NCBI GenBank assembly: GCA_005801425.1
Contig: SYDY01000019.1
Span: 1 to 64,000 of the forward strand
DNA length: 64,000 nt
Reading direction: 5' to 3'
Source: Bdellovibrionales bacterium
GTDB lineage: Bacteria; Myxococcota; XYA12-FULL-58-9; SYDY01
Numbering within the stretch: the first letter of the stretch is position 1; every line of letters begins with the position of its first letter. The position numbers and the translations under genes are program-made. Positions 14,065-56,159 of this stretch are shown here, in pieces. The notes under the pieces were generated by a model. It had not been told where the DNA came from, did not search any database, and saw only the letters and a program-made list of their open reading frames with translations.

Positions 14065-14489
14065 ATATCAATATCGCAGATTGTACGTATGATGACGTGT
14101 TCTCCATTTTATTGACGGATACGGGATGGAATGAACGTCAGTATATGGAAGAGCTTACTGCAAAGACGGCCCGTGGTTTGGCAGCACGGATCGATGGGTG
14201 CACTGTAGGGGTGATCTTTTGGCGTCAAGCATTTGAAGTTGCTGAAATTACGATGTTGGCTGTTGCTCCCGCATGGCACCGTAGAGGGATTGCACGGCTA
14301 TTATTAAAATCTATGCTGAAAAACCTTTGTGAAAACGGTGCACACGAGATCCTTCTTGAAGTACGTGTGTCAAATACCGCGGCTCGGTCTCTTTATCTGA
14401 GCGCAGGGTTTGTCGAAATTGCATGGCGTAGCCTTTATTACGCGAACCCTGATGAGGATGCATTGGTGATGTCGTTACGATTGTCTTGA
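14061..14489 (+). CDS. rimI: Ribosomal protein S18-alanine N-acetyltransferase RimI-like GNAT
   Basis: This 142-residue GNAT acetyltransferase resembles RimI, which acetylates the N-terminal Ala of ribosomal protein S18. The acetyl-CoA-binding motif A reads VAPAWHRRGIARLLL, preceded by EITMLAV. The C-terminal EVRVSNTAARSLYLSAGF is characteristic of RimI. The frame is open further upstream, but the GTG at 14061 overlaps the previous stop by four bases (GTGA), which decides the start. The substrate assignment rests on family resemblance only; other GNAT substrates are possible. Confidence 0.8.
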   Translation: MNINIADCTYDDVFSILLTDTGWNERQYMEELTAKTARGLAARIDGCTVGVIFWRQAFEVAEITMLAVAPAWHRRGIARLLLKSMLKNLCENGAHEILLEVRVSNTAARSLYLSAGFVEIAWRSLYYANPDEDALVMSLRLS

Positions 14490-14533
14490 CCTACCCCGCC
14501 GATCCCTTGCTAGACGTGTTTGCGGGGGATCCT

Positions 14534-16018
14534 ATGCAAAGCAACACATCATCGATTTTGGATTTATTGTATAAAGCGGGCGAGGCCTTTTTACCAATCG
14601 CTTTGCTTTTGGTTGTCGTCGCACTTGTTGTGATGCGGCTTCCTTCTCAAAAACTAGGTCATTCATCGGCATTTTTGCGTCGACGTGTTGCGAATTGGTT
14701 ACCACTGGGCCTCACCTATGCGCTTCTCTATATGGGCCGCTACAATTTAACTGTGAGCAAAAATGCGCTTGGCGATCTGATGACCAAAGCGGATTTTGGG
14801 ACCATATTTTTCTGGGGGACACTTACGTATGGCTGTGCATTTGTAATCAATGGGCCTCTGACCGATGCACTTGGTGGAAAGCGTGCAATGTTACTTGCAA
14901 CGAGTGGGTCAGCAGTTGCAAATGGTTTACTCGGATTTGTAACCTATCTATTGGTTTCTTCTGACAGTGGAATTGGCGTAGAACTTCTTTCCTCACGCCG
15001 CGTGTTGACCTACTCGATACTTTACGCGGTCAATATGTATTTCCAAAGCTTTGGTGCTGTTTCAATTGTGAAGGTGAATGCCCATTGGTTTCATCTTAAA
15101 GAGCGCGGCGTTTTTGGGGGTGTGTTTGGTATTTTGATATCGTTGGGGATCTATTTTGCCTTTGATCTGGGGCAGATGATTGTAGATCATGCAGATCTCT
15201 GGTGGGTATTTTATACGCCAGCGGTTTTGCTTACGTGTGCTTTTGGGGTCAACAGAATTATGGTGAAGGATAGCCCTGTTGCAGCGGGTTTTCCTGATCT
15301 TGATACGGCTGATGCATCGTCGAGTGATGATGGCCAAGTACTATCAGCTTTGACGATAGCGAAGAAGATGCTTAATAATCCAGTGATTTTAACCATTGCC
15401 TTGGTTGAATTTTGCAGTGGATTTTTACGAAACGCCATTATGCACTGGTACATCGTATTCGCCAAAGAAACAGGCATTATGGGGAGTTTTGTTGCAAAAC
15501 ACTGGGGAATGATGCTTTGCATGGCAGGCATTTTAGGAGGGGTACTGGCGGGTACAATTTCAGATCGCCTTTTCCAATCGCGCAGGGGACCGGTGTCGGC
15601 GGTGTTGTATTTTCTTATGGTTGCTGGATCTGCTGCCTGTTTTTTTGCGCTGGATTCGGTGATGCTGGGGTGGATCGTTGTGGGAATGTCTATGTGCATT
15701 ATCGGTGTGCATGGTATGCTTTCTGGTACAGCAAGCATGGATTTTGGTGGGCGAAAAAATGTGGGTGTTGCGGTTGGTATGATCGACGGTTTTGTCTATT
15801 TGGGCACAGCATTTCAATCTTTGGTGCTGGGCTATATTCTTCCTTCAGGTCCTCTTGCAAAAGATGCGCTTGCCTGGAAAGTGTGGCCCATGGCCATGTT
15901 GCCGATGGCGATTTTAGGTTTTTTTTTGGCGATGCGGATTTGGAATGCCAAACCTGAGGCAAAATCAAGGCCCAATCAGTTGGATGGATTTGCAGAAGAT
16001 GCTGTGAAAGCGGCCTAA
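14534..16018 (+). CDS. Major facilitator, organophosphate:phosphate antiporter (GlpT/UhpT-like)
   Basis: This 494-residue polytopic inner-membrane protein belongs to the OPA branch of the major facilitator superfamily, which exchanges sugar phosphates or glycerol-3-phosphate for phosphate. The conserved region near LTYALLYMGRYNLTVSKNAL, followed by the loop GPLTDALGGKRAML, supports this. About twelve hydrophobic spans are visible, split by a Ser/Asp-rich central loop. A TTG at 14486 is possible, but GGGGGA six bases before the ATG at 14534 is better. Most OPA members lack the extra N-terminal span seen here. The substrate is unknown. Confidence 0.8.
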   Translation: MQSNTSSILDLLYKAGEAFLPIALLLVVVALVVMRLPSQKLGHSSAFLRRRVANWLPLGLTYALLYMGRYNLTVSKNALGDLMTKADFGTIFFWGTLTYGCAFVINGPLTDALGGKRAMLLATSGSAVANGLLGFVTYLLVSSDSGIGVELLSSRRVLTYSILYAVNMYFQSFGAVSIVKVNAHWFHLKERGVFGGVFGILISLGIYFAFDLGQMIVDHADLWWVFYTPAVLLTCAFGVNRIMVKDSPVAAGFPDLDTADASSSDDGQVLSALTIAKKMLNNPVILTIALVEFCSGFLRNAIMHWYIVFAKETGIMGSFVAKHWGMMLCMAGILGGVLAGTISDRLFQSRRGPVSAVLYFLMVAGSAACFFALDSVMLGWIVVGMSMCIIGVHGMLSGTASMDFGGRKNVGVAVGMIDGFVYLGTAFQSLVLGYILPSGPLAKDALAWKVWPMAMLPMAILGFFLAMRIWNAKPEAKSRPNQLDGFAEDAVKAA

Positions 16019-16036
16019 GTTCTCAGCTAGGCTTTT
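16013..16036. terminator. Weak hairpin at convergent gene ends
   Basis: GCCTA at 16013-16017 can pair with TAGGC at 16028-16032, followed by four T bases. It sits between the convergent antiporter gene and the repeat protein gene. The stem is only five base pairs, so a terminator role is tentative. Confidence 0.3.
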
Positions 16037-16448
16037 AACAAAATAATTTGTCTTCTTCTGACCAATTTTTGTGAAAACCATCATCGTAGGTTGCCGGCTG
16101 TAAAGTGGTACTTGTGTTTTCTTGTGTACGTGCCGATGTTTCGACTCGTGATGCTTCAGCGGCGTATCGGTCGAGCGCGATGTCTAAAGTTGGATCCCAC
16201 ATGTGGTTATTTCGCGATGATGTGCTGAAGTCATGCGCACGGACGTACAAAATATTTGATGCTTCACTGCGAGGTTGCGCTAGGGCTGAAGGTGTTGGTG
16301 GTGGGGTTGCGTATTCGGATCTGCGTGACGTCTCAACTTCGTAGCGATTAAGTTGAATATCTAGATTGGGATCTCCTGTTGGGGAGGGTTGGCTAAAATC
16401 GTGTCCACGAGCGAACAATATATTGGAAGTTTCGCACGATATGCGCAT
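16035..16448 (-). CDS. Unrecognised protein with two internal repeats
   Basis: I do not recognise this 137-residue protein. It contains two similar units: residues 8-42 (SNILFARGHDF, then DPNLDIQLNRYEVETSR) and residues 64-101 (SNILYVRAHDF, then DPTLDIALDRYAAEASR). A Pro-rich linker (TPPPTP) joins them. There is no signal peptide or membrane span. The frame is open to 16520, but GAAAGG six bases before the ATG at 16448 and the dehydrogenase stop at 16459 favour this start. It is the last gene of the cluster running from 21364. The repeat conservation shows it is a real protein; its function is unknown. Confidence 0.7.
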   Translation of the reverse strand: MRISCETSNILFARGHDFSQPSPTGDPNLDIQLNRYEVETSRRSEYATPPPTPSALAQPRSEASNILYVRAHDFSTSSRNNHMWDPTLDIALDRYAAEASRVETSARTQENTSTTLQPATYDDGFHKNWSEEDKLFC

Positions 16449-16458
16449 CGCCATCCTT

Positions 16459-18087
16459 TCACGGTTGTGGTCCTGCGCCGCGTTCAGCCAATCTCGTGGC
16501 GTTTGCGAGGGTGCGATCACGCATCAATCGATCTGTTTCCCATGATGCGTGTTCGAGCATGCAGGCCATCATAAGGCTATGGCCAAGATGCATCGCGAAC
16601 CGCCGTGCATGGGCTTCGCGCTTCGCAGGATGGCTGGCTGTGGTATTCCACCAGGCACATGCACAAGCTAGCCATGTTTCGCAGATCGATGCAAATGGGG
16701 TATGTGCGAAAGGTGCCAAACGCTGTTTGATCATGCTGACCAATGTTTCCATTCCGCCTGCGGTTGTAAGGCCCCGGAGCAATTCGAGAGACAGCACATT
16801 GGTTGTTCCTTCCCAGATAGGAAGAACTTGGGCATCGCGCAGTAATTCAGGTAATCCTGTATCCTCAATATAGCCTGCGCCGCCAAAACATTCGAGAACT
16901 TCGCTTGCATGGCTTACTGCCATTTTTCCTGTAAGTAATTTTGTAAGAGGCATGATGGCGCGCACTGCTGCTGCGTGTGCAGGGGGTAAATCACCGGCAT
17001 TTAATTGTTCGAGTTGGTCGGCCGCAAAAAATGCCAAATGAAATGCACCTTCCCATTGTGCTTCAAGATCATCAAGTGTTTCGCGATGCAATGGCTTCTC
17101 ACAAAGCGGTGCACCAAAGGCGACACGTTTTTTTGCATAATCGTTGGCCAGATCAAGTCCTCGTCGCATGCTAGATATCGAACATATGGCATTCCACAGG
17201 CGTGTGACATTGAGCATGTGGCTCATGTTGCGAACACCATTGTGTGGTTCTGCAACCAACATTGCGGGCGTTCCATCAAGTTCAAGTTCGGCAGTGGGGA
17301 CGTGTCTTGTCCCAAGCTTGTCTTTAAGTCGGCTGACATGAATGTTTTGTAGAAAACCGTTTTTATCACGCAGTTGGACGAGGAATAGCGCAAGGCCTTT
17401 GCCGCCTTCGGGGTTTCCAACAGGACGTGCAAGTGTGAGGGCAACGTTTGCTGTTACTGCGGACGTAAACCATTTGTTGCCAGTTAAATACCATATTCCA
17501 TCGATGCATTGCGCTGTGGTTTGCGTTAGGCCTACGTCAGAGCCTCCAGTGCGTTCTGTCATCCATTGGCCTGATGTCCATGCTTGTTGGGGATCACGAT
17601 GGATCAAACGTGGAAGGACATCTTCTGCGAGAGATGCTGCAGAGGGATTATTTTGTGCAAGTAAAGTGAGGCTTTGTGCACATCCATCGGTCATGGCGAG
17701 TGGGCACGTATAGACCTGGCTTGATGGTGCGAAGAGGTAAACCAAGGCCATTTGATGGATCCGTCGATGCTGTCCGGAGCCATAGGGAATGGCGACGAGC
17801 CCCATTTCAGCCGCAATTTCGGCATATCGTTCCCATGAGCGCGCGACATGAATGGTGTGTACGGGATGGCCCCATGGATCGATGGGAATATGCACAGGTT
17901 CTTCAAGTCGACAACGTTGCGCAAGAGAATACATTTCCCCTGCGGCGAGATCGCCCATGCGTGATAGATCGGGCTCTATATGCTTCAGGCCCGCTGGGCC
18001 CAGGTACCGTAGCATGGTTCGCTGAAGTAATATATCGTTGAGATAGGTATTCGAAAGTTGTGGGGGTTCTTGAAAGAACGCATTCAT
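16459..18087 (-). CDS. Acyl-CoA dehydrogenase, AidB-like
   Basis: This 542-residue FAD enzyme resembles AidB and related long acyl-CoA dehydrogenases. The N-terminal extension, with a DPWGHPVHTIH-type segment, is a feature of the AidB branch. The middle has the MTERTGGSDVG motif and WYLTGNKWFTSA, typical of the FAD/substrate site. The C-terminal helical domain has VLECFGGAGYIEDTGLPELL. It starts 12 bases after the plsB stop. Its presence behind a glycerol-3-phosphate acyltransferase suggests a role in acyl-chain metabolism, although E. coli AidB acts in the alkylation response. The substrate is not deducible. Confidence 0.85.
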   Translation of the reverse strand: MNAFFQEPPQLSNTYLNDILLQRTMLRYLGPAGLKHIEPDLSRMGDLAAGEMYSLAQRCRLEEPVHIPIDPWGHPVHTIHVARSWERYAEIAAEMGLVAIPYGSGQHRRIHQMALVYLFAPSSQVYTCPLAMTDGCAQSLTLLAQNNPSAASLAEDVLPRLIHRDPQQAWTSGQWMTERTGGSDVGLTQTTAQCIDGIWYLTGNKWFTSAVTANVALTLARPVGNPEGGKGLALFLVQLRDKNGFLQNIHVSRLKDKLGTRHVPTAELELDGTPAMLVAEPHNGVRNMSHMLNVTRLWNAICSISSMRRGLDLANDYAKKRVAFGAPLCEKPLHRETLDDLEAQWEGAFHLAFFAADQLEQLNAGDLPPAHAAAVRAIMPLTKLLTGKMAVSHASEVLECFGGAGYIEDTGLPELLRDAQVLPIWEGTTNVLSLELLRGLTTAGGMETLVSMIKQRLAPFAHTPFASICETWLACACAWWNTTASHPAKREAHARRFAMHLGHSLMMACMLEHASWETDRLMRDRTLANATRLAERGAGPQP

Positions 18088-18099
18088 GACGCAGTTTAA

Positions 18100-20682
18100 C
18101 TATGATGCCAAGAAGCGTGCAAGATGCGTGATGAACTTTTCTAATTCGGCTTCGGCATACGCATCAGTGAGTTGTACGTGCGCTTTATTATCACGCGTAT
18201 CGATGCGAATAACACCCATACGCGTAAAACTATCAAGTGCACCTTTGATTAATATGCCGCTTGTTGCTTCTGGTCTGCGAATGATGCCTTCGAGGAATGC
18301 ACGGCGTCCGCCTTCAAAGGCCCGTGTTTCTAATTCTTTTTGCCACATGGGAAACGCATGCAATTCACGTAATGCGCATGCGGTGCACCAGTATGCTTCT
18401 ATGAAGTTATCAAGAAGATGTGCGAGTTGACGCAATGAAACATCGTCGGTGGGATGTAGCATATTGTTGGTACGGTGGACGTAGCCGATATCTATTAACA
18501 ACTGACTTGCTTCTGTGTAGCCTGCAGAAAAATCGATACCGTGTTTGTATACAAACTCGCGCTTAAAAAGCCGAGAAAGAAAGAGCGTTTCTTCCCGGAC
18601 AACAGGTTCTTCATCTTGTGGAAAGGCCAAAATACTACGCGCAAGAAGAGCACCTGGGGCGAAGTGATTCATTAACCCGTTTTTATGGTAGTCGACCAAA
18701 ATGCGTGATTCTTCTGGGACACGAAACACGGGTTCACTGTCTTGTCTGCCAGCATATTCAACGGCGAGAAGCCCATCAGAAGCCAAACGCTCGCTTGCAG
18801 TAATAAGGCCTTGATTGACTTGTGCGAGATCTGCGAGGGCGGATGTTACTGGAACACCGATGTGTCGCAAGTAGCGCAAAAGAGCATGGCTTGTAGCAAG
18901 AAATCGTTGTCTGGATAGTCCACGTTGTGCATGGGCGAGCAGGGCGGCTGAACCAACAGAGGTTGGGGTTGCGACAAGTGTCTCATTGATTCCACTGAGA
19001 AGCTTGAATCCTAAGCGCTCGGTGAGAATACGCCAACTGTCATCTTTGTCAGGGGTGCCTTCGGAAAATGTGCGAAGAGAAATCGGTTCACCAAAATTAA
19101 GAAGCACGCGTCCGTAGCGTGAGCGCAGGATCTGTGTTGATTTGATAAGTCCGGTGATGCTTTCTTTATGTTTATCACCACCGGTCAATTCGTGCTTATA
19201 GGCGCTCGCTTCGATGATACGCTCGTAATCGACACTTACCGGAACAAACATCAATTCTTGTTCGGGATTACGTCGCCATGCATCGACCAGAATGCGCAAA
19301 ATTCCAAATTTGGGCATCAGAAGTTTGCCGGTTCGACTGCGTGTGCCTTCGGGGAAAAATTCAATGGATGTACTTGTTCGCACAAGTTCTGTGACGTATG
19401 CGCGAAATACGGCGGTATACAGCGGTGAATCTTTAAATGATCGTCGTAGAAAAAAAGCACCACAACGTCGAAAGATCGGGCCTAGAGGGAAGAATGATAA
19501 ATTGGCACCGGCCGCTATATGGGGCGGCGTAATCCCACGTGTCCAAAGCGTATAGGATAGAACAAGATAATCGATATGGCTGCGGTGGCATGGGCAGAAA
19601 ACAAGTGGACCTTTGCGAGATGCATCAAGGGCACGTTGCAGTCCGGGTTCGTCTACCGAGATGCCATCGTAAATACGATTAAAAATGATCGATAAAAAAC
19701 GTGAGATCCCACGTACATACTCTACATTGTAGAGCGCAGCGATTTGACCTAAATATTTACGAGCTTTTTCTTCTACGAATGAAATATTTTTCCCGGTGCG
19801 TTCTTGTTCTTCGGAAATAGCCACTTGTAATTCAGGATCGCGTAGGACTTGTCTGAAGGTACGTTCGATGGCGGGTAATTCAGGGCCAGCGATAACCCGT
19901 TGTTCGGCTTGGAGTCGTTTGTTGAGTTCATGGCTGAGATGACGTGCTTGCGATGCGCGTGTGCGTTCTGCATCCGTTGCGAGGTACGCTTTTAGATCGA
20001 TGGGATCTGCACATCGTATGTCGGCATTTCGGAACACGGCGAAGAGTGATATGATGTGCCGAAGCGTGCTTAATCGACGTCGATGACCCAAAAGGCGATC
20101 AGGCCACGAACCTCCGACCGCGCTACTGTCTTGGGCTTCGGCCAAGACCTGTGGCACGAAAAAAATGGGTCGATCCGATTGCGCTTGTGCTTCAATAATT
20201 CCTTCGAGCAAGCTAACCCCTTCACGACGTTCCAAGGTCGGCTGTGGGGTGGGAAGAAGCATAAAAACGGTACCTCCGGCGATCGTTGCAAGATAGGCCT
20301 GTTTGCCTATTTCGCTTAGATGTGCTGGAGCTATGGCTTCAATTGTTGATTCGGACGGCGCGCTCAAAGTTCTGCTAACCGGTTGAAACCATTTGATGCC
20401 CGTGCCACCAATAAAGTCGGCCCAAGGCAATCCGGATTGCTCAAGCAAATGGTTGTAAAACAGCGCAATCCAAGCACTTTCTCCGCGGACGACGTGAACG
20501 ATGGTTCCCTGATTGTGCAATTCTTTGAGTGTGTTGATGGTTGTTTCAGGAAAATGGGATCGGGAGAACAAATGCCGGAAACACCATCGCAAAATAGGGC
20601 CATACTTGCGGTGCGTACGCGGTGTACGCGCTGGCAACCGGGTAACTGCATGGGATGTTGTGGGTGCTTTGGCATTCATCAT
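18100..20682 (-). CDS. plsB: Glycerol-3-phosphate 1-O-acyltransferase PlsB
   Basis: PlsB transfers the first acyl chain to glycerol-3-phosphate at the inner membrane and so commits carbon to phospholipid. The catalytic HX4D motif is in CPCHRSHIDYL (His366, Asp371), and FFPEGTRSRTGK (about 443) binds the phosphate. The start is set by TGATG at 20684-20680, where the upstream gene's stop overlaps this ATG. That gives 860 residues, slightly longer than E. coli PlsB. An extra N-terminal frame to 20772 overlaps the membrane-protein gene and is not needed. It is translationally coupled to a small membrane protein and a cyclic nucleotide-binding protein. Confidence 0.93.
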   Translation of the reverse strand: MMNAKAPTTSHAVTRLPARTPRTHRKYGPILRWCFRHLFSRSHFPETTINTLKELHNQGTIVHVVRGESAWIALFYNHLLEQSGLPWADFIGGTGIKWFQPVSRTLSAPSESTIEAIAPAHLSEIGKQAYLATIAGGTVFMLLPTPQPTLERREGVSLLEGIIEAQAQSDRPIFFVPQVLAEAQDSSAVGGSWPDRLLGHRRRLSTLRHIISLFAVFRNADIRCADPIDLKAYLATDAERTRASQARHLSHELNKRLQAEQRVIAGPELPAIERTFRQVLRDPELQVAISEEQERTGKNISFVEEKARKYLGQIAALYNVEYVRGISRFLSIIFNRIYDGISVDEPGLQRALDASRKGPLVFCPCHRSHIDYLVLSYTLWTRGITPPHIAAGANLSFFPLGPIFRRCGAFFLRRSFKDSPLYTAVFRAYVTELVRTSTSIEFFPEGTRSRTGKLLMPKFGILRILVDAWRRNPEQELMFVPVSVDYERIIEASAYKHELTGGDKHKESITGLIKSTQILRSRYGRVLLNFGEPISLRTFSEGTPDKDDSWRILTERLGFKLLSGINETLVATPTSVGSAALLAHAQRGLSRQRFLATSHALLRYLRHIGVPVTSALADLAQVNQGLITASERLASDGLLAVEYAGRQDSEPVFRVPEESRILVDYHKNGLMNHFAPGALLARSILAFPQDEEPVVREETLFLSRLFKREFVYKHGIDFSAGYTEASQLLIDIGYVHRTNNMLHPTDDVSLRQLAHLLDNFIEAYWCTACALRELHAFPMWQKELETRAFEGGRRAFLEGIIRRPEATSGILIKGALDSFTRMGVIRIDTRDNKAHVQLTDAYAEAELEKFITHLARFLAS

Positions 20683-20951
20683 CAAAAAACCGGTGTGTTG
20701 AGTGAAATATCTATGCCAAAGACGAATCGGAGTAAAAGATATATTAAGCCGCATGAAAGAAGAAGAACCCACAAGCCTGCAGAGGCCATGCAGGCCAGGC
20801 TCACGCCGGCAAGCAGCGCACCGATTAGTATGACGGGTTCTGCGATGCGCCTTATGGGATCCAGCGAAGCCGACAGTTGTGGCATAAGCAAAACGGATAA
20901 AGCGGACTTAGGACTCGCATGGATTTCTTTGGACTTTTTCATACGACTCAT
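20682..20951 (-). CDS. Small membrane protein coupled to plsB
   Basis: This is an 89-residue protein I do not recognise. It has a basic N terminus (MSRMKKSKE) and two closely spaced hydrophobic segments near residues 38-55 and 58-75, separated by a short turn, so it should be a membrane hairpin. Its ATG overlaps the stop of the cyclic nucleotide-binding gene (ATGA), and its stop overlaps the plsB start (TGATG). The double coupling argues strongly that it is real and works with PlsB or its regulator, perhaps as a membrane anchor; that role is an inference. Confidence 0.75.
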   Translation of the reverse strand: MSRMKKSKEIHASPKSALSVLLMPQLSASLDPIRRIAEPVILIGALLAGVSLACMASAGLWVLLLSCGLIYLLLRFVFGIDISLNTPVF

Positions 20952-21364
20952 CGTTGGTTGCTCTTTCGTAAACGTGACACAAGCACCCGAATGATCCCAC
21001 GGGAAAGTTCTGGTTTTTCCATCATGATTTCCAAAAAATCACTTTGTGCAATTCGTAAAAAAACGGCATCGGAGAGACATGTAACGGTTCCTGATCGCTG
21101 TTCATTATCAAGGATCGCCATTTCTCCGAAACATTGCCTTGTCCCAAGTTCTGCCACCGTTTTTTCTTGCACTTCGATACGAACGCGTCCATCCACAATC
21201 AAGTACATGGAATCGCCAGGATCTCCTTCTGCGAAGACCCGTTGTCCGGTTGAGAGTTCAACTTCTTCGGCGATGTTGGCAATGCCGGAGAGTTCCTCAC
21301 TGGGAATATCGACAAAAAGTTCCACGCCCCCCAAAAAGAGGACACGTTCTACGGTGCTAATCAC
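20948..21364 (-). CDS. Cyclic nucleotide-binding domain protein
   Basis: A single CNB domain fills most of this 138-residue protein. The phosphate-binding cassette reads FGEMAILDNEQRSGTV, with the Glu and Arg that contact ribose and phosphate present, and the earlier beta roll has EGDPGDSMYLIVDGRVRI. It should therefore bind cAMP or a related nucleotide. There is no DNA-binding domain, unlike Crp. TTG at 21370 is possible, but GGAG seven bases before GTG at 21364 favours the latter. It is the first gene of the plsB cluster and may make phospholipid synthesis responsive to a cyclic nucleotide (inference). Confidence 0.85.
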   Translation of the reverse strand: MISTVERVLFLGGVELFVDIPSEELSGIANIAEEVELSTGQRVFAEGDPGDSMYLIVDGRVRIEVQEKTVAELGTRQCFGEMAILDNEQRSGTVTCLSDAVFLRIAQSDFLEIMMEKPELSRGIIRVLVSRLRKSNQR

Positions 21365-21524
21365 ACCCAAACTCCATGTTTTAACCTGTTAATCCATCTC
21401 TTAAATGAGGCAACACCTGACTTTGTCACATGCTGTCCCACAGAGGAAGGGGGGCTGTGCGTAGAAAAGAACGACGTCGGCCGGCTATGGCGCTCTTGGG
21501 GGGTATCGGTTAAACATCGCGTAA

Positions 21525-22217
21525 ATGGGAGAATTTTCAGACATTTTGTGCGCAGCTCGTGTGGCATTGGATGTTCAGGCTGAGCTCGGATTGCAAGGCT
21601 TACCCGCGCCTATGGAAAATCATAGGTATGAAAAACCGTTGAATTTTCCTGTTGTTAGGGCTGCCTTTGAGTCTTTAATGGCGATCCAAGAAAATATTGG
21701 TGACTGCAAACGGTGTAAATTGTCATCGGGTCGCACACATGTGGTCTTTGGTGTGGGAGATCCTAAGGCGCGATTGATGTTTGTTGGGGAGGCCCCTGGC
21801 AGAGATGAAGATCTCCAAGGTGAGCCTTTTGTGGGCGCGGCAGGGCAATTGCTCGATAAAATGATTGTGGCCATGGGGCTTAAGCGATCGGGGGTGTACA
21901 TCGCGAACATTGTAAAATGCCGCCCGCCGGGGAATCGGGATCCCGAATCGGATGAAATTGCACAATGTGAGCCGTTTTTACGTCGACAAATCGCTTCTGT
22001 AAGGCCAGATGTCATTGTGGCGCTTGGACGTTTTGCTGTTCAGGCGTTGTTGCGGGATCCTGCCCCAATTTCCCGACAACGTGGTCATTGGCGGGAGTAT
22101 GAGGGGATAGCTTTGATGCCGACCTTTCACCCGGCTTATTTGCTGAGAAATCCAGATGAAAAACGAAAGGTATGGGATGATCTAAAGATCGTGATGGCGC
22201 GTCTTGGAACACTATAG
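21525..22217 (+). CDS. Uracil-DNA glycosylase, family 4 (iron-sulfur)
   Basis: This DNA repair enzyme removes uracil from DNA. The 230-residue protein has the family 4 pattern: Cys pair CKRCKL near residue 65, [17 protein letters not shown] as active-site motif 1, and [12 protein letters not shown] near the end as motif 2. Two further Cys ([11 protein letters not shown] and later QCEPF) complete the ligands for a 4Fe-4S cluster. The first 50 residues are a poorly conserved lead. No strong ribosome binding site is seen for the ATG at 21525, so the exact start is uncertain. It is divergent from the CNB-plsB cluster. Confidence 0.92.
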
Positions 22218-26676: not shown

Positions 26677-28896
26677 CTATTTTCGCAGACGTGATTCGAT
26701 TGAAATTTTGATGGTGTAATGGATGCCTGCGTACTTGCTAAATAGAGTGCGCATGATGTTACCGCTTAAGCGCAAACAGACACAAGGCGTTGTTGTGTAA
26801 ATGGTTGCTCGGCGTGTGCGTCCTGGATGAATTGCCGCGATCTCGCCGAAGAAATTATCGTCATCGGTATGTGCGATCGTTGACATGATATCGCCATCAA
26901 CAATAACGCTCACAGTACCCTCACACAGCAAGTAAAAATCATCTCCGATCTCTCCTTGTTGAATAACAGTATGATTTTTTTCGAATTGAACTTTATCACC
27001 ATAGGCGGCAATTTGATTTCGCACCGAAAGATCTAAATGTCGGAAAAGTTCGGCGGATCCGACCATCGGACGGTGTTCCCAGATCGTACGGATTTTTTTC
27101 TCTAAGCCCTTCGCATGGAAATATTCATCAAGAAACGAACCGTTTATTTCAAACAATTCCATGGGTGTTTCGGCAGTGATGGTTGCCGTATTATGACCTC
27201 GGGCATCGACCAATTCGATGTGTCCAAAAAATTCGCCGGGGCGTAATTCTGTTATTTTTTCATTGTGACTGTTCCACACTGAGGCAATCCCAGACACAAT
27301 GATGCTGAACATCGAACGGGGGTCTTGTTCTCCTTCGTGTGCAAGGATGCTTTGACTGCTGATTGTGCGTGTTTTTCCTTTGAAGAGCATGGCAGAAAAC
27401 CAGGCAGGATCATCGACCTCTAAAAATTTGAGTGCACGCAACAAGCGTGCTGGGATAGCGGGGTGCAGCGGACGTGGCGTGATATGTGTGATGAGTTGTC
27501 CCGGTTCAGCAAGACGATGACCAAAACTTCGGGTATGCGCATTATCGGGGCAATGATAATAAAGAATGTCATTGGGATTGCCTTCCCAATCTTTGGGATG
27601 CCCATGAATAATCGATTCACCTACGTCGGCAAAATAGGTGCTGTTTTCAATGCGTTTGCTTGGAATAAGATTACGTAGAGATTGAAACATGTTTTGGTTT
27701 AAGATCCCGCATTGAAGCATCTCGTCGAGGCCTGCGTGATGGATCGTATCACCCGATACTTGAATACTGTGTTTATGGCCGCCACCATCATTCATTGCCA
27801 CATGGACACCAATGGTCGGAATAGAATGTGCTGTGTAGAAAAAATTAAATTCAGCGCCCAACATTTCAAAAGGTTCACCCGGGGTCACGCGTTGGTAGTC
27901 GATATAACCCGCAACATCTTCTTCCGATTCGCCGAAATGGCATGCCAGCTTGGCAAGTGCAGAACGATAAATGGGTTCGGCGGTGATGACTTTGGGACGT
28001 TGCCCTGCAAGAATAAGTTCGACAAACGCACCCATGTGGTCTTCATGACAATGGCTAAGAATAATCGCATCAATGTCGTCGCAGCTTATTCCTTGGCTTT
28101 GAAGAAGATAACGTGTTCCCACGGGACCGTCGTAAACGACTGCGCGGCCGTTGATCCAAAATAAAAATCCTGTCGTTGGACCACTGAGGTCGAATCCACT
28201 GCGTGTGCCGAGCGCTTTGATTCCAAAAGTAATGGGCGTTTGGGTGATGGAGGGTGTTTTGAGTGTTGCAAAAGGGGTCACAGGCCCATGGATTGAGAGA
28301 TCAATAGGCTGTGTTTTATTTTGTGTACGAATCAAAAATTCATGCGGTGCTGTGCGTGCAATATGAACAGAGTCATCTAACAGTTGGATTTTCCCACTTC
28401 GATCAAAACATACAATATCCACCGACTCGTTGATTTCACATTGGCGATTGTCTTTTTTGACGGCGAGATGTCGACTTATATTGGCCAGTATCGTGGCGAT
28501 GTCATCGGGAACGAGGCGTTTTCCCTGTGGGTCGCGATAGCTTTGCATTTGCGCAAGCGAGGGACCGTAGAGTGTTATCTCTAATGCACGTTTGATTCCA
28601 TCACGTTGTTCTGGGTCACATACGAGGACCAATCGTTCATTTTCTAAACGGCGATTGAATGCTGCACCATAGACAAACAAAAATTCATACAGAAAAAATT
28701 CTGGACTGAATTGGGGTGTGGCAGCGACCAGAAGTGTTTGTGGTGCCACAAGAATGCGCGGAAACGGGATGCTATGTTGGTTGCAGAAATATTTCGTTGC
28801 TTTAAATGCATCGGAGGGTGCACCAAACAAGATCGACCCGCGAGATGTGAGGGCCAGTTTTGCACCAGGATACGGGCTGAAAATGTCGAGTGACAT
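26677..28896 (-). CDS. Metallo-beta-lactamase domain fused to two cyclic nucleotide-binding domains
   Basis: This 739-residue protein has three parts. Residues 1-220 have no recognised domain. Residues 230-470 form a metallo-beta-lactamase fold with the metal motif SHCHEDHMG (281-289), His357, SGDT (Asp383) and HGHP (431-434), so the hydrolase site looks intact. Residues 500-595 and 612-725 are CNB domains. The first has FGHIELVDARGHNTAT, lacking the usual Glu and Arg. The second has FGEIAAIHPGRTRRAT and should bind nucleotide. No signal peptide is seen. A cyclic-nucleotide-controlled hydrolase or phosphodiesterase is plausible. It ends five bases from the anti-sigma gene. Confidence 0.88.
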   Translation of the reverse strand: MSLDIFSPYPGAKLALTSRGSILFGAPSDAFKATKYFCNQHSIPFPRILVAPQTLLVAATPQFSPEFFLYEFLFVYGAAFNRRLENERLVLVCDPEQRDGIKRALEITLYGPSLAQMQSYRDPQGKRLVPDDIATILANISRHLAVKKDNRQCEINESVDIVCFDRSGKIQLLDDSVHIARTAPHEFLIRTQNKTQPIDLSIHGPVTPFATLKTPSITQTPITFGIKALGTRSGFDLSGPTTGFLFWINGRAVVYDGPVGTRYLLQSQGISCDDIDAIILSHCHEDHMGAFVELILAGQRPKVITAEPIYRSALAKLACHFGESEEDVAGYIDYQRVTPGEPFEMLGAEFNFFYTAHSIPTIGVHVAMNDGGGHKHSIQVSGDTIHHAGLDEMLQCGILNQNMFQSLRNLIPSKRIENSTYFADVGESIIHGHPKDWEGNPNDILYYHCPDNAHTRSFGHRLAEPGQLITHITPRPLHPAIPARLLRALKFLEVDDPAWFSAMLFKGKTRTISSQSILAHEGEQDPRSMFSIIVSGIASVWNSHNEKITELRPGEFFGHIELVDARGHNTATITAETPMELFEINGSFLDEYFHAKGLEKKIRTIWEHRPMVGSAELFRHLDLSVRNQIAAYGDKVQFEKNHTVIQQGEIGDDFYLLCEGTVSVIVDGDIMSTIAHTDDDNFFGEIAAIHPGRTRRATIYTTTPCVCLRLSGNIMRTLFSKYAGIHYTIKISIESRLRK

Positions 28897-53870: not shown

Positions 53871-56159
53871 CTATTTCGCAGTCATATTCCACACACCATC
53901 CCATGGTATTTCGGGGGGTGTGGTGAGCATCGTTTTGCATCGCGTCAGGAACATATCGGAGACAGGGTCGTTGGGTATGTGCTGGTTTCTTATTTCGGCA
54001 AATAGCGTGGAGGCTTCATTCCATTGCATGGCGCGGTACATGGCCAAGGCTTGGGCAAAGAGTGCCATGGCGTGGGTTTCTTGTTCGTTTGGTGTGCCCC
54101 TGCCTCGGATCTCATAAATTTTGACAGGTTCATGCCGTCCTACCACGCGAACGATATCTATTTCGCGTCCATAGATCGCATGTTTGGATGCTTCATACGT
54201 ATCGGAAGATACCACGATATGCGTTCCGTAAACTTTGTTGATTCCTTCGAGCCGTGAGGCCAAATTGACGTGATCGCCCATCGCCGTATAGGCGAATCGA
54301 ACATGTGAACCCATGTTGCCAATACTCATGGGGCCGGTCGACAAGCCGATCCCAATATCTATATGCGGCAAATTAAATTTCGTCCATTTTGATCGCAGAT
54401 CTTTGAGTGCATCAAGCATATCCAATGCGACCAGACATCCTCGCTCAGCGTGATTGTCATAGATTGCAGGTGCACCAAAAATCGCCATGATGGCATCGCC
54501 AACATACTTGTCTAGGGTACCATCGTAGCGAAGAATAATATCGGTCATGGGGGTTAGGTAGCTGTTGAGGAGCTGTACAAGCTGTTCTGGAGAAAGTTGC
54601 TCACTGATGGTTGTGAAGCCGCGTATGTCGCTGAAAAGAACGGTACACACACGCCTTTCCCCACCCAGCTTTAATTTCGAAGTGTCCCGTAACATTTCTT
54701 CGATCACGTTTTTATTAAGATAAAGTTGAAATGCAGAACGGATTTGGGCCTTTTCTTTCCCTTCGGTCATGTATCCGTAAATGGAAAGTGCAATAAATGT
54801 AATGATGATTTGAAGCGTTGGGATCACCGATAAAATCCAAATACCGCGAGGAAACAAAAACCCGAGATCGATGGTATAAAACAGTGCAAGTGCACATATG
54901 ACGGCCATCGTTGCAGGCAGAGCACTCATGCGAGGGATTAAATATCCCATGGCAATGGCTGCGGCGAGGTAGGCCAGTGCTTCAATTAACGCAATGCCAA
55001 ACCAACGATCCAGATGATGGCCATCCAAAATATTTTGAATGGCGGTGGCGTGGACGTAGACACCGGGTGTTCCTGATGAGAATGCGGTGGGTACAAGATC
55101 AATATTGAGTCCTGCAGCAGTGAAACCGAACAAAATAATTTTGTTGTTAAGAAACCCTTTGGGAATATGCTCATCCACAATATCTGCAATGCTGATGCTT
55201 TCAAAAATTTCTTCAGGGGGTCCGTAATGGCGTAAAAGAAGTCGTCCATGGCGATCCAATGGGATGTGACCGGTCTCTTGTCCAAGGAGTGATGCGACAC
55301 CGACCAATGTTTCTGTTCCCGCAAGCATTTCAACGATGGGTTTAATGGTGGCATTCGTGGCTACTGCGGATGTTAAAAGGGCGAGTGACGGAAAAAGTAA
55401 ATTGTCATACTGAGAAAACAGGTTGAGGCGTCGTACAACACCATCGCGGTCACGTGGTGCATTGATAAATGCAAAATGTTTGGCTTCTTGCACAAGGGCA
55501 GCGAGAGGTGCTTGTACGCCGACGGTTTTGGATACAGGGAGATCTTGAATATGTCCGTGGTTTGCGGGCTGCAGCACGCTCATTGTTTCCCCGTCATGGG
55601 TGCTTACCACGTGTTCATATAATGTGTTGATCCCCGAAGGACGAATGCTTTGTTGATCACGCAGAATTTCGTTGGGATCGATCCCTGCCATATCACTTTT
55701 ACGGAAAAAATTGATGTAACCTAAAATCGTCCTCTCTTGATATTCAGCAATCGCTTCAGCCAGCACAGTCTCCTGATGTTGATCTCTATTTTGTGCGTGA
55801 TCACTGAAAACGGCATCAAAGCTGATAGCCAGGGGCTCATGTGCTGTCGCATGGGTGATAAATGCTGCGATCACCTCTCTGTTCCATGGCCATAGCCCAA
55901 ATCGTGCGATGGCCTGCTCATCGATGGCAGCAATGACAACATCGGCCCCTTGTTGAGGTCTTTCGGTGCCTCGCGCGATCAATTTTTGATCTAACGTTTT
56001 AAGTTCGAGCAAATGTATGAAACCCGAATGTGAGAGAATGCCTTCGTTTGTGATATTGAGTTCGATGGTGAGGTGCAACGAGACAGCTGCGATCCCGATG
56101 CTTAGAGCGATAAGCCATGGGATGAGCCGCATTCGAGTCTTTTTTTCTTGGTCCGTCAC
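53871..56159 (-). CDS. CHASE2-domain adenylate cyclase
   Basis: This 762-residue membrane-bound class III cyclase makes cyclic nucleotide. One span (13-30) is followed by an extracytoplasmic CHASE2 sensor (about 35-375) and three spans (385-460). The cyclase domain (about 500-680) has metal-binding Asp511 (FSDIRGF) and Asp555 (VGDAIMA), Lys551 for adenine, Thr624, and the Asn632/Arg636 catalytic pair (DHVNLASRLE). These residues indicate ATP as substrate. A C-terminal tail of about 75 residues follows. It may feed the CNB proteins at 20948 and 26677. Confidence 0.93.
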   Translation of the reverse strand: MTDQEKKTRMRLIPWLIALSIGIAAVSLHLTIELNITNEGILSHSGFIHLLELKTLDQKLIARGTERPQQGADVVIAAIDEQAIARFGLWPWNREVIAAFITHATAHEPLAISFDAVFSDHAQNRDQHQETVLAEAIAEYQERTILGYINFFRKSDMAGIDPNEILRDQQSIRPSGINTLYEHVVSTHDGETMSVLQPANHGHIQDLPVSKTVGVQAPLAALVQEAKHFAFINAPRDRDGVVRRLNLFSQYDNLLFPSLALLTSAVATNATIKPIVEMLAGTETLVGVASLLGQETGHIPLDRHGRLLLRHYGPPEEIFESISIADIVDEHIPKGFLNNKIILFGFTAAGLNIDLVPTAFSSGTPGVYVHATAIQNILDGHHLDRWFGIALIEALAYLAAAIAMGYLIPRMSALPATMAVICALALFYTIDLGFLFPRGIWILSVIPTLQIIITFIALSIYGYMTEGKEKAQIRSAFQLYLNKNVIEEMLRDTSKLKLGGERRVCTVLFSDIRGFTTISEQLSPEQLVQLLNSYLTPMTDIILRYDGTLDKYVGDAIMAIFGAPAIYDNHAERGCLVALDMLDALKDLRSKWTKFNLPHIDIGIGLSTGPMSIGNMGSHVRFAYTAMGDHVNLASRLEGINKVYGTHIVVSSDTYEASKHAIYGREIDIVRVVGRHEPVKIYEIRGRGTPNEQETHAMALFAQALAMYRAMQWNEASTLFAEIRNQHIPNDPVSDMFLTRCKTMLTTPPEIPWDGVWNMTAK

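What the first reader, a model, noticed from the sequence alone, without database searches (positions are those of the whole stretch)
16035..21364. Cyclic nucleotide-binding protein, membrane hairpin and PlsB are translationally coupled
The CNB gene, an 89-residue two-span protein and plsB overlap by ATGA then TGATG. An AidB-like dehydrogenase and a repeat protein follow within 12 and 10 bases. The CNB cassette keeps its Glu and Arg, so it should bind nucleotide, yet it has no DNA-binding domain. This suggests direct control of the first step in phospholipid synthesis by cAMP or a similar messenger, with the small protein as membrane adaptor. I know of no described system of this type.
Basis: partly seen in the sequence, partly recalled or inferred. 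Interest (0 to 1): 0.62.

Follow-up and report, generated by a model that had tools for sequence, protein, structure and literature searches.

The report
Relocated transporter-partner cAMP-domain gene before plsB
A small protein that probably binds a cyclic nucleotide sits just ahead of a phospholipid-synthesis gene in one order of myxobacteria-like bacteria, but its relatives almost everywhere else sit beside a nucleotide-carrier membrane protein, so it is most likely that carrier's sensor whose gene moved, not a dedicated switch for lipid synthesis.

Summary
On the minus strand a 138-residue cyclic nucleotide-binding (CNB) gene, an 89-residue two-span gene and plsB overlap (ATGA, TGATG). E83 and R92 are kept, and the model matches cAMP receptor proteins. 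CNB directly precedes plsB in all 8 sampled genomes of the order (six families).

CNB orthologs elsewhere in the phylum mostly sit beside a TLC/NTT nucleotide-carrier protein with HEAT repeats, never beside plsB. Among 195 phylum genomes, 74 have the CNB, 75 the NTT-HEAT protein and 73 both. Some genomes fuse them. The plsB-linked CNBs form one clade inside this family, next to genome G011, and the order's now unlinked NTT-HEAT genes are likewise sister to G011's. G011 reads NTT-HEAT, CNB, two-span gene in a row, so the "membrane adaptor" probably belongs to that system too.

Best reading: the detached sensor of an NTT-HEAT carrier, relocated once to the head of plsB. Direct control of PlsB is not excluded but has no support beyond adjacency. 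Adjacent and fused NTT-HEAT-cNBD systems were described in 2017; I found no description of the plsB placement.

The parts
20948..21364 (-). stand-alone cyclic nucleotide-binding domain protein, 138 aa from the GTG start (ORF extends to TTG at 21370); ortholog of the cNBD partner of NTT-HEAT proteins
20682..20951 (-). 89-aa two-span membrane protein, start overlaps the CNB stop (ATGA); homologs between CNB and plsB in family f5 and behind NTT-HEAT-CNB in G011
18100..20682 (-). plsB, glycerol-3-phosphate acyltransferase, 860 aa, start overlaps the small-gene stop (TGATG)
16459..18087 (-). AidB-like acyl-CoA dehydrogenase, 12 nt after plsB; not found downstream of plsB in the rest of the order
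16035..16454 (-). repeat protein of unknown function (two ~50-aa repeats), no relatives found in the sampled loci; start ATG 16454 or 16448
21525..22217 (+). uracil-DNA glycosylase-superfamily gene, divergent neighbour of CNB in 8 of 8 genomes of the order (directly or one gene away); control for local synteny

Best explanation
The CNB protein is the separate cNMP-sensing subunit of an NTT-HEAT membrane carrier (TLC-family carrier domain plus HEAT repeats). Its gene, together with a two-span membrane gene, once followed the NTT-HEAT gene. In the ancestor of this order it moved a few genes to the 5' side of plsB, where it is now translationally coupled to plsB. The carrier gene stays elsewhere in the genome (G000:C32:54355-57084). 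Most likely mechanism: cAMP or a similar cNMP binds the E83/R92 cassette, moves the C-terminal helices, and through contact with the HEAT repeats changes the carrier's activity; co-expression with plsB ties the amount of sensor to membrane synthesis. Shown here by sequence: domain identity, intact cassette, co-occurrence with NTT-HEAT, gene fusions, tree position, a single origin of the plsB arrangement. Inferred: ligand binding, contact with the HEAT repeats, carrier substrate, co-transcription, any effect on PlsB.
For: Co-occurrence: CNB in 74 and NTT-HEAT in 75 of 195 phylum genomes, both in 73, neither in 119; the three exceptions are genomes 70-86% complete. Both appear or are missing together in at least six families with mixed presence. 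Outside the order 55 of 69 CNB places lie within 8 kb of an NTT-HEAT gene, 50 of them downstream of it on the same strand (27 within 150 nt); none is next to plsB. CNB of this family is fused to NTT-HEAT in several lineages, e.g. G011:C90 at 51% identity to the window protein, and in Fidelibacterota, Chloroflexota and Acidobacteriota. All 8 genomes of the order keep an NTT-HEAT gene; the 7 read in full have no CNB of their own fused or beside them. Trees: plsB-linked CNBs are one clade (96/96) inside the NTT-HEAT-linked family, next to G011; the order's NTT-HEAT genes are also sister to G011's. G011 has NTT-HEAT, CNB, two-span gene, then cytc, engB, surA-like and rimI-like genes convergent with plsB, i.e. 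the same neighbourhood in another arrangement. Published context: NTT-HEAT followed by or fused to a cNBD (PMC5381601). Ligand site: E83/R92 kept, model pLDDT 91, best PDB matches are cAMP receptor proteins.
Against: In this order the CNB gene has stayed with plsB, not with NTT-HEAT, across six families whose PlsB proteins are mostly 40-50% identical (40-68%), which hints at some use of the plsB link. Vertical inheritance alone could keep both CNB and NTT-HEAT. No binding or activity data. The window CNB evolves fast (branch 0.92 against 0.10-0.30 in its order), so its role could have shifted. Support joining G011's CNB to the order clade is moderate (89/56).
Confidence: 0.62

Rival explanations
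1. One reading: the CNB protein, anchored by the two-span protein, binds PlsB and switches the first step of phospholipid synthesis on or off with cAMP or a similar messenger.
For: CNB directly upstream of plsB, same strand, in 8 of 8 genomes of the order; intact cassette; a CHASE2-cyclase gene in the same window; control of PlsB activity after translation is known to matter in E. coli (PMC7439487, title and start of abstract only).
Against: The same protein is present in 66 other genomes of the phylum away from plsB and mostly with NTT-HEAT; the two-span gene is absent in 4 of 8 plsB-linked genomes and occurs behind NTT-HEAT-CNB in G011; UDG adjacency is about equally conserved.
Confidence: 0.12
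2. Shared sensor: CNB serves both the NTT-HEAT carrier and PlsB, so that one cNMP signal matches nucleotide or phosphate-compound traffic to membrane synthesis.
For: Near-obligate co-occurrence with NTT-HEAT plus order-wide retention beside plsB.
Against: No direct sign of PlsB contact; not needed to explain the data.
Confidence: 0.14
3. Hitchhiking: the local rearrangement placed CNB before plsB by accident, and the pair is kept only because the whole block evolves slowly or because plsB uses the CNB promoter.
For: The divergent genes UDG and aspartokinase are also kept around the block, and the engB/surA-like/rimI-like genes lie on the other side of plsB in several members; one origin of the arrangement.
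Against: The tight coupling (gaps of 2-53 nt, or overlaps through the small gene) is kept, while genes downstream of plsB turn over freely.
Confidence: 0.12

Closest known systems
NTT-HEAT / NTT-HEAT-cNBD proteins and the separate cNBD gene behind NTT-HEAT (Major et al. 2017, PMC5381601)
   Same: Same CNB family by tree and identity (about 44-57% to separate copies outside the order, 51% to a fused copy); same partner protein present in the genome
   Different: In this order the cNBD gene is no longer beside NTT-HEAT; it heads the plsB operon, with or without a two-span gene
CRP/PKA-type cyclic nucleotide-binding domain (Pfam PF00027)
   Same: Fold and phosphate-binding cassette Glu and Arg
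   Different: No DNA-binding, kinase or channel domain; the A after R-S is G in the window protein (33 of 35 relatives have A)
PlsB glycerol-3-phosphate acyltransferase (NCBIfam TIGR03703 / PRK04974)
   Same: Homology over most of the length, acyltransferase motifs present
   Different: Below the curated equivalog cutoffs (396 of 610 and 387 of 618.5 bits); the operon head is a CNB gene

Membership tests
Cyclic nucleotide-binding domain PF00027 | Significant profile match over the whole domain | tested here: met
   E=5.9e-21, 74.7 bits against cutoff 27.5
Cyclic nucleotide-binding domain PF00027 | Phosphate-binding cassette Glu and Arg | tested here: met
   FGEMAILDNEQRSGT, E83 and R92; E 34/35 and R 35/35 in the family
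Cyclic nucleotide-binding domain PF00027 | Binds cAMP or cGMP | not testable with these tools
   Only motif and model similarity to cAMP receptor proteins
cNBD partner of NTT-HEAT | Gene adjacent to, or fused with, NTT-HEAT | tested here: not met
   In the window's order NTT-HEAT is on another contig; met in most places outside the order
cNBD partner of NTT-HEAT | Clusters with NTT-HEAT-linked cNBDs in a tree | tested here: met
   Clade nested in that family, next to G011
cNBD partner of NTT-HEAT | NTT-HEAT present in the same genome | tested here: met
   G000:C32:54355-57084, TLC and HEAT; 8 of 8 genomes of the order
cNBD partner of NTT-HEAT | Physical contact with NTT-HEAT | not testable with these tools
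   No assay or complex prediction available
PlsB | Acyltransferase motifs HX4D, GxxFxRR, FxEGTRS, VPV | tested here: met
   HRSHID 366, GAFFLRRSF 408, FFPEGTRSR 442, FVPVSVDY 479
PlsB | Passes NCBIfam equivalog cutoff | tested here: not met
   396.4 of 610 bits (PRK04974) and 387.4 of 618.5 (plsB), still the best matches; filed as a PlsB homolog with intact motifs, not as a certified equivalog

The most novel reading that the evidence does not exclude
A cNMP sensor that evolved as a subunit of the NTT-HEAT carrier was handed over to, or is shared with, PlsB in one order of Myxococcota, so that cAMP or a similar messenger sets phospholipid synthesis; alternatively the link betrays a so far unknown role of NTT-HEAT carriers in membrane lipid precursor traffic.
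Probability: 0.2. Interest if true: 0.75.

Novelty: new variant of a known kind. Interest (0 to 1): 0.45.

Why it matters
NTT-HEAT-cNBD proteins are widespread, from cyanobacteria to oomycetes, with NTT-HEAT also in chlamydiae, but were described as uncharacterised (PMC5381601). Near-perfect co-occurrence of NTT-HEAT with a separate CNB protein makes that pair a clear target, and the order in which the CNB gene moved to plsB offers a natural experiment: it can show whether the sensor works on the carrier, on phospholipid synthesis, or on both.

Tried and rejected
Pfam and NCBIfam scans of the two-span protein and its close homologs gave nothing. A greedy longest-ORF gene caller missed genes in GC-rich loci and was replaced by a homology-weighted one. 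Weak profile hits of the two-span family in G033 and G030 (about 540-aa proteins) were set aside as unlikely; small hits in G010 and G013 look like distant relatives but do not lie beside a CNB of this family. A paper search for CNB domain with PlsB found none. Relative-rate comparison in the order (identity of the window's protein to the others, then of the others among themselves: CNB 58/73%, NTT-HEAT 38/50%, plsB 41/49%, UDG 58/55%) hints that CNB and NTT-HEAT sped up together in this genome, but eight genomes are too few to lean on.

Full report
Observation. The minus-strand genes are as described: CNB (20948-21364), an 89-residue two-span protein (20682-20951) and plsB (18100-20682), joined by ATGA and TGATG overlaps, then an AidB-like dehydrogenase 12 nt on and a repeat protein. 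The CNB domain is clear, has no other domain, keeps Glu83 and Arg92, and an AlphaFold model (mean pLDDT 91) matches cAMP receptor proteins best in the PDB. Whether it binds a nucleotide was not measured.

Conservation. In all eight sampled genomes of the order (six families) a single CNB ortholog lies upstream of plsB on the same strand. The two-span gene lies between them in the window genome and in the three genomes of family f5 only. The dehydrogenase and repeat gene were not found in relatives' loci. As a control, the divergent UDG gene is beside the CNB gene (directly or one gene away) in 8 of 8 as well, so part of this conservation is a slowly evolving block.

What the CNB protein is. 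The same CNB family (mostly 44-63% identity, single copy in nearly all genomes that have it) occurs through the phylum, which the record titles of matching contigs show to be Myxococcota/'Deltaproteobacteria'. Outside the order it is never next to plsB. It usually follows a roughly 960-residue protein with a TLC ATP/ADP-carrier domain and HEAT repeats. Of 195 genomes, 74 have the CNB, 75 the NTT-HEAT protein and 73 both; the exceptions are genomes 70-86% complete. Fisher's p of 3e-50 ignores shared ancestry, but presence and absence switch together within at least six families. In G011, Fidelibacterota, Chloroflexota and others the two are one protein. Major et al. 2017 had already noted NTT-HEAT genes followed by, or fused to, a cNBD, and suggested that cAMP might tune the carrier (PMC5381601).

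How it got to plsB. In a tree of 105 CNB domains the eight plsB-linked ones form one clade (96/96) inside the NTT-HEAT-linked family, next to the two copies of G011. The order's NTT-HEAT genes, now elsewhere in the genome and without a CNB of their own, are likewise sister to G011's (SH-aLRT 99). In G011 the CNB is preceded by NTT-HEAT and followed by a homolog of the two-span protein (profile E=3e-8), then by cytochrome-like, engB, surA-like and rimI-like genes that converge on plsB. The last of these also converge on plsB in members of the order. The simplest account is one local rearrangement that carried CNB, with or without the two-span gene, to the front of plsB.

Function. Co-occurrence and fusion argue that CNB works with NTT-HEAT. 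The plsB link then means co-expression, or at most a second client. Direct cAMP control of PlsB stays possible, and would matter because PlsB activity is a control point of membrane synthesis in E. coli (PMC7439487, title and start of abstract only), but nothing beyond adjacency supports it, and the proposed membrane adaptor is missing in half of the plsB-linked genomes.

Limits. Many genomes are drafts, so the 14 CNB places outside the order without a nearby NTT-HEAT may partly be contig ends. The CNB tree has few columns and moderate support at the G011 node. No complex could be predicted with the tools at hand. The names of the order and families are not given by the genome tool.

Verdict. 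Observation confirmed; interpretation partly supported; a new arrangement of a known, uncharacterised system.

Noticed in passing
G000:C100:31492-32514 (locus L004:1126-3243, L228): A CNB domain with an intact cassette (VGEMAIIDQRPRSAD) is inserted in 2-oxoglutarate dehydrogenase E1 between the N-terminal motif (aa 16-48) and the E1 core. Seven genomes in three families (f1, f7, f14; 39-48% identity to the window genome's copy) have it. It suggests a cNMP-responsive TCA-cycle enzyme; a paper search found no title that suggests a description.
   Followed up: partly
window 26677-28896, minus strand: Metallo-beta-lactamase-fold protein with two C-terminal CNB domains, 739 aa.
   Followed up: partly
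G000:C3:45082-45321 (L003): Protein phosphatase 2C-like protein with a C-terminal CNB domain (PP2C read by eye, CNB by Pfam model).
   Followed up: no
window 53871-56159, minus strand: CHASE2 plus adenylate/guanylate cyclase catalytic domain, a possible source of the cNMP.
   Followed up: partly
window 14486-16018, plus strand: MFS protein closest to the organophosphate antiporters (PgtP/GlpT/UhpC, below cutoffs), convergent with the plsB operon; might import glycerol-3-phosphate, the PlsB substrate.
   Followed up: partly
L224 (G010:C17:65263-65388) and L226 (G013:C5:61599-61754): Small two-span proteins ending in LGIRIDLDP / MGIRINIDP look like distant relatives of the window's two-span protein, not beside a CNB gene of this family.
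   Followed up: partly
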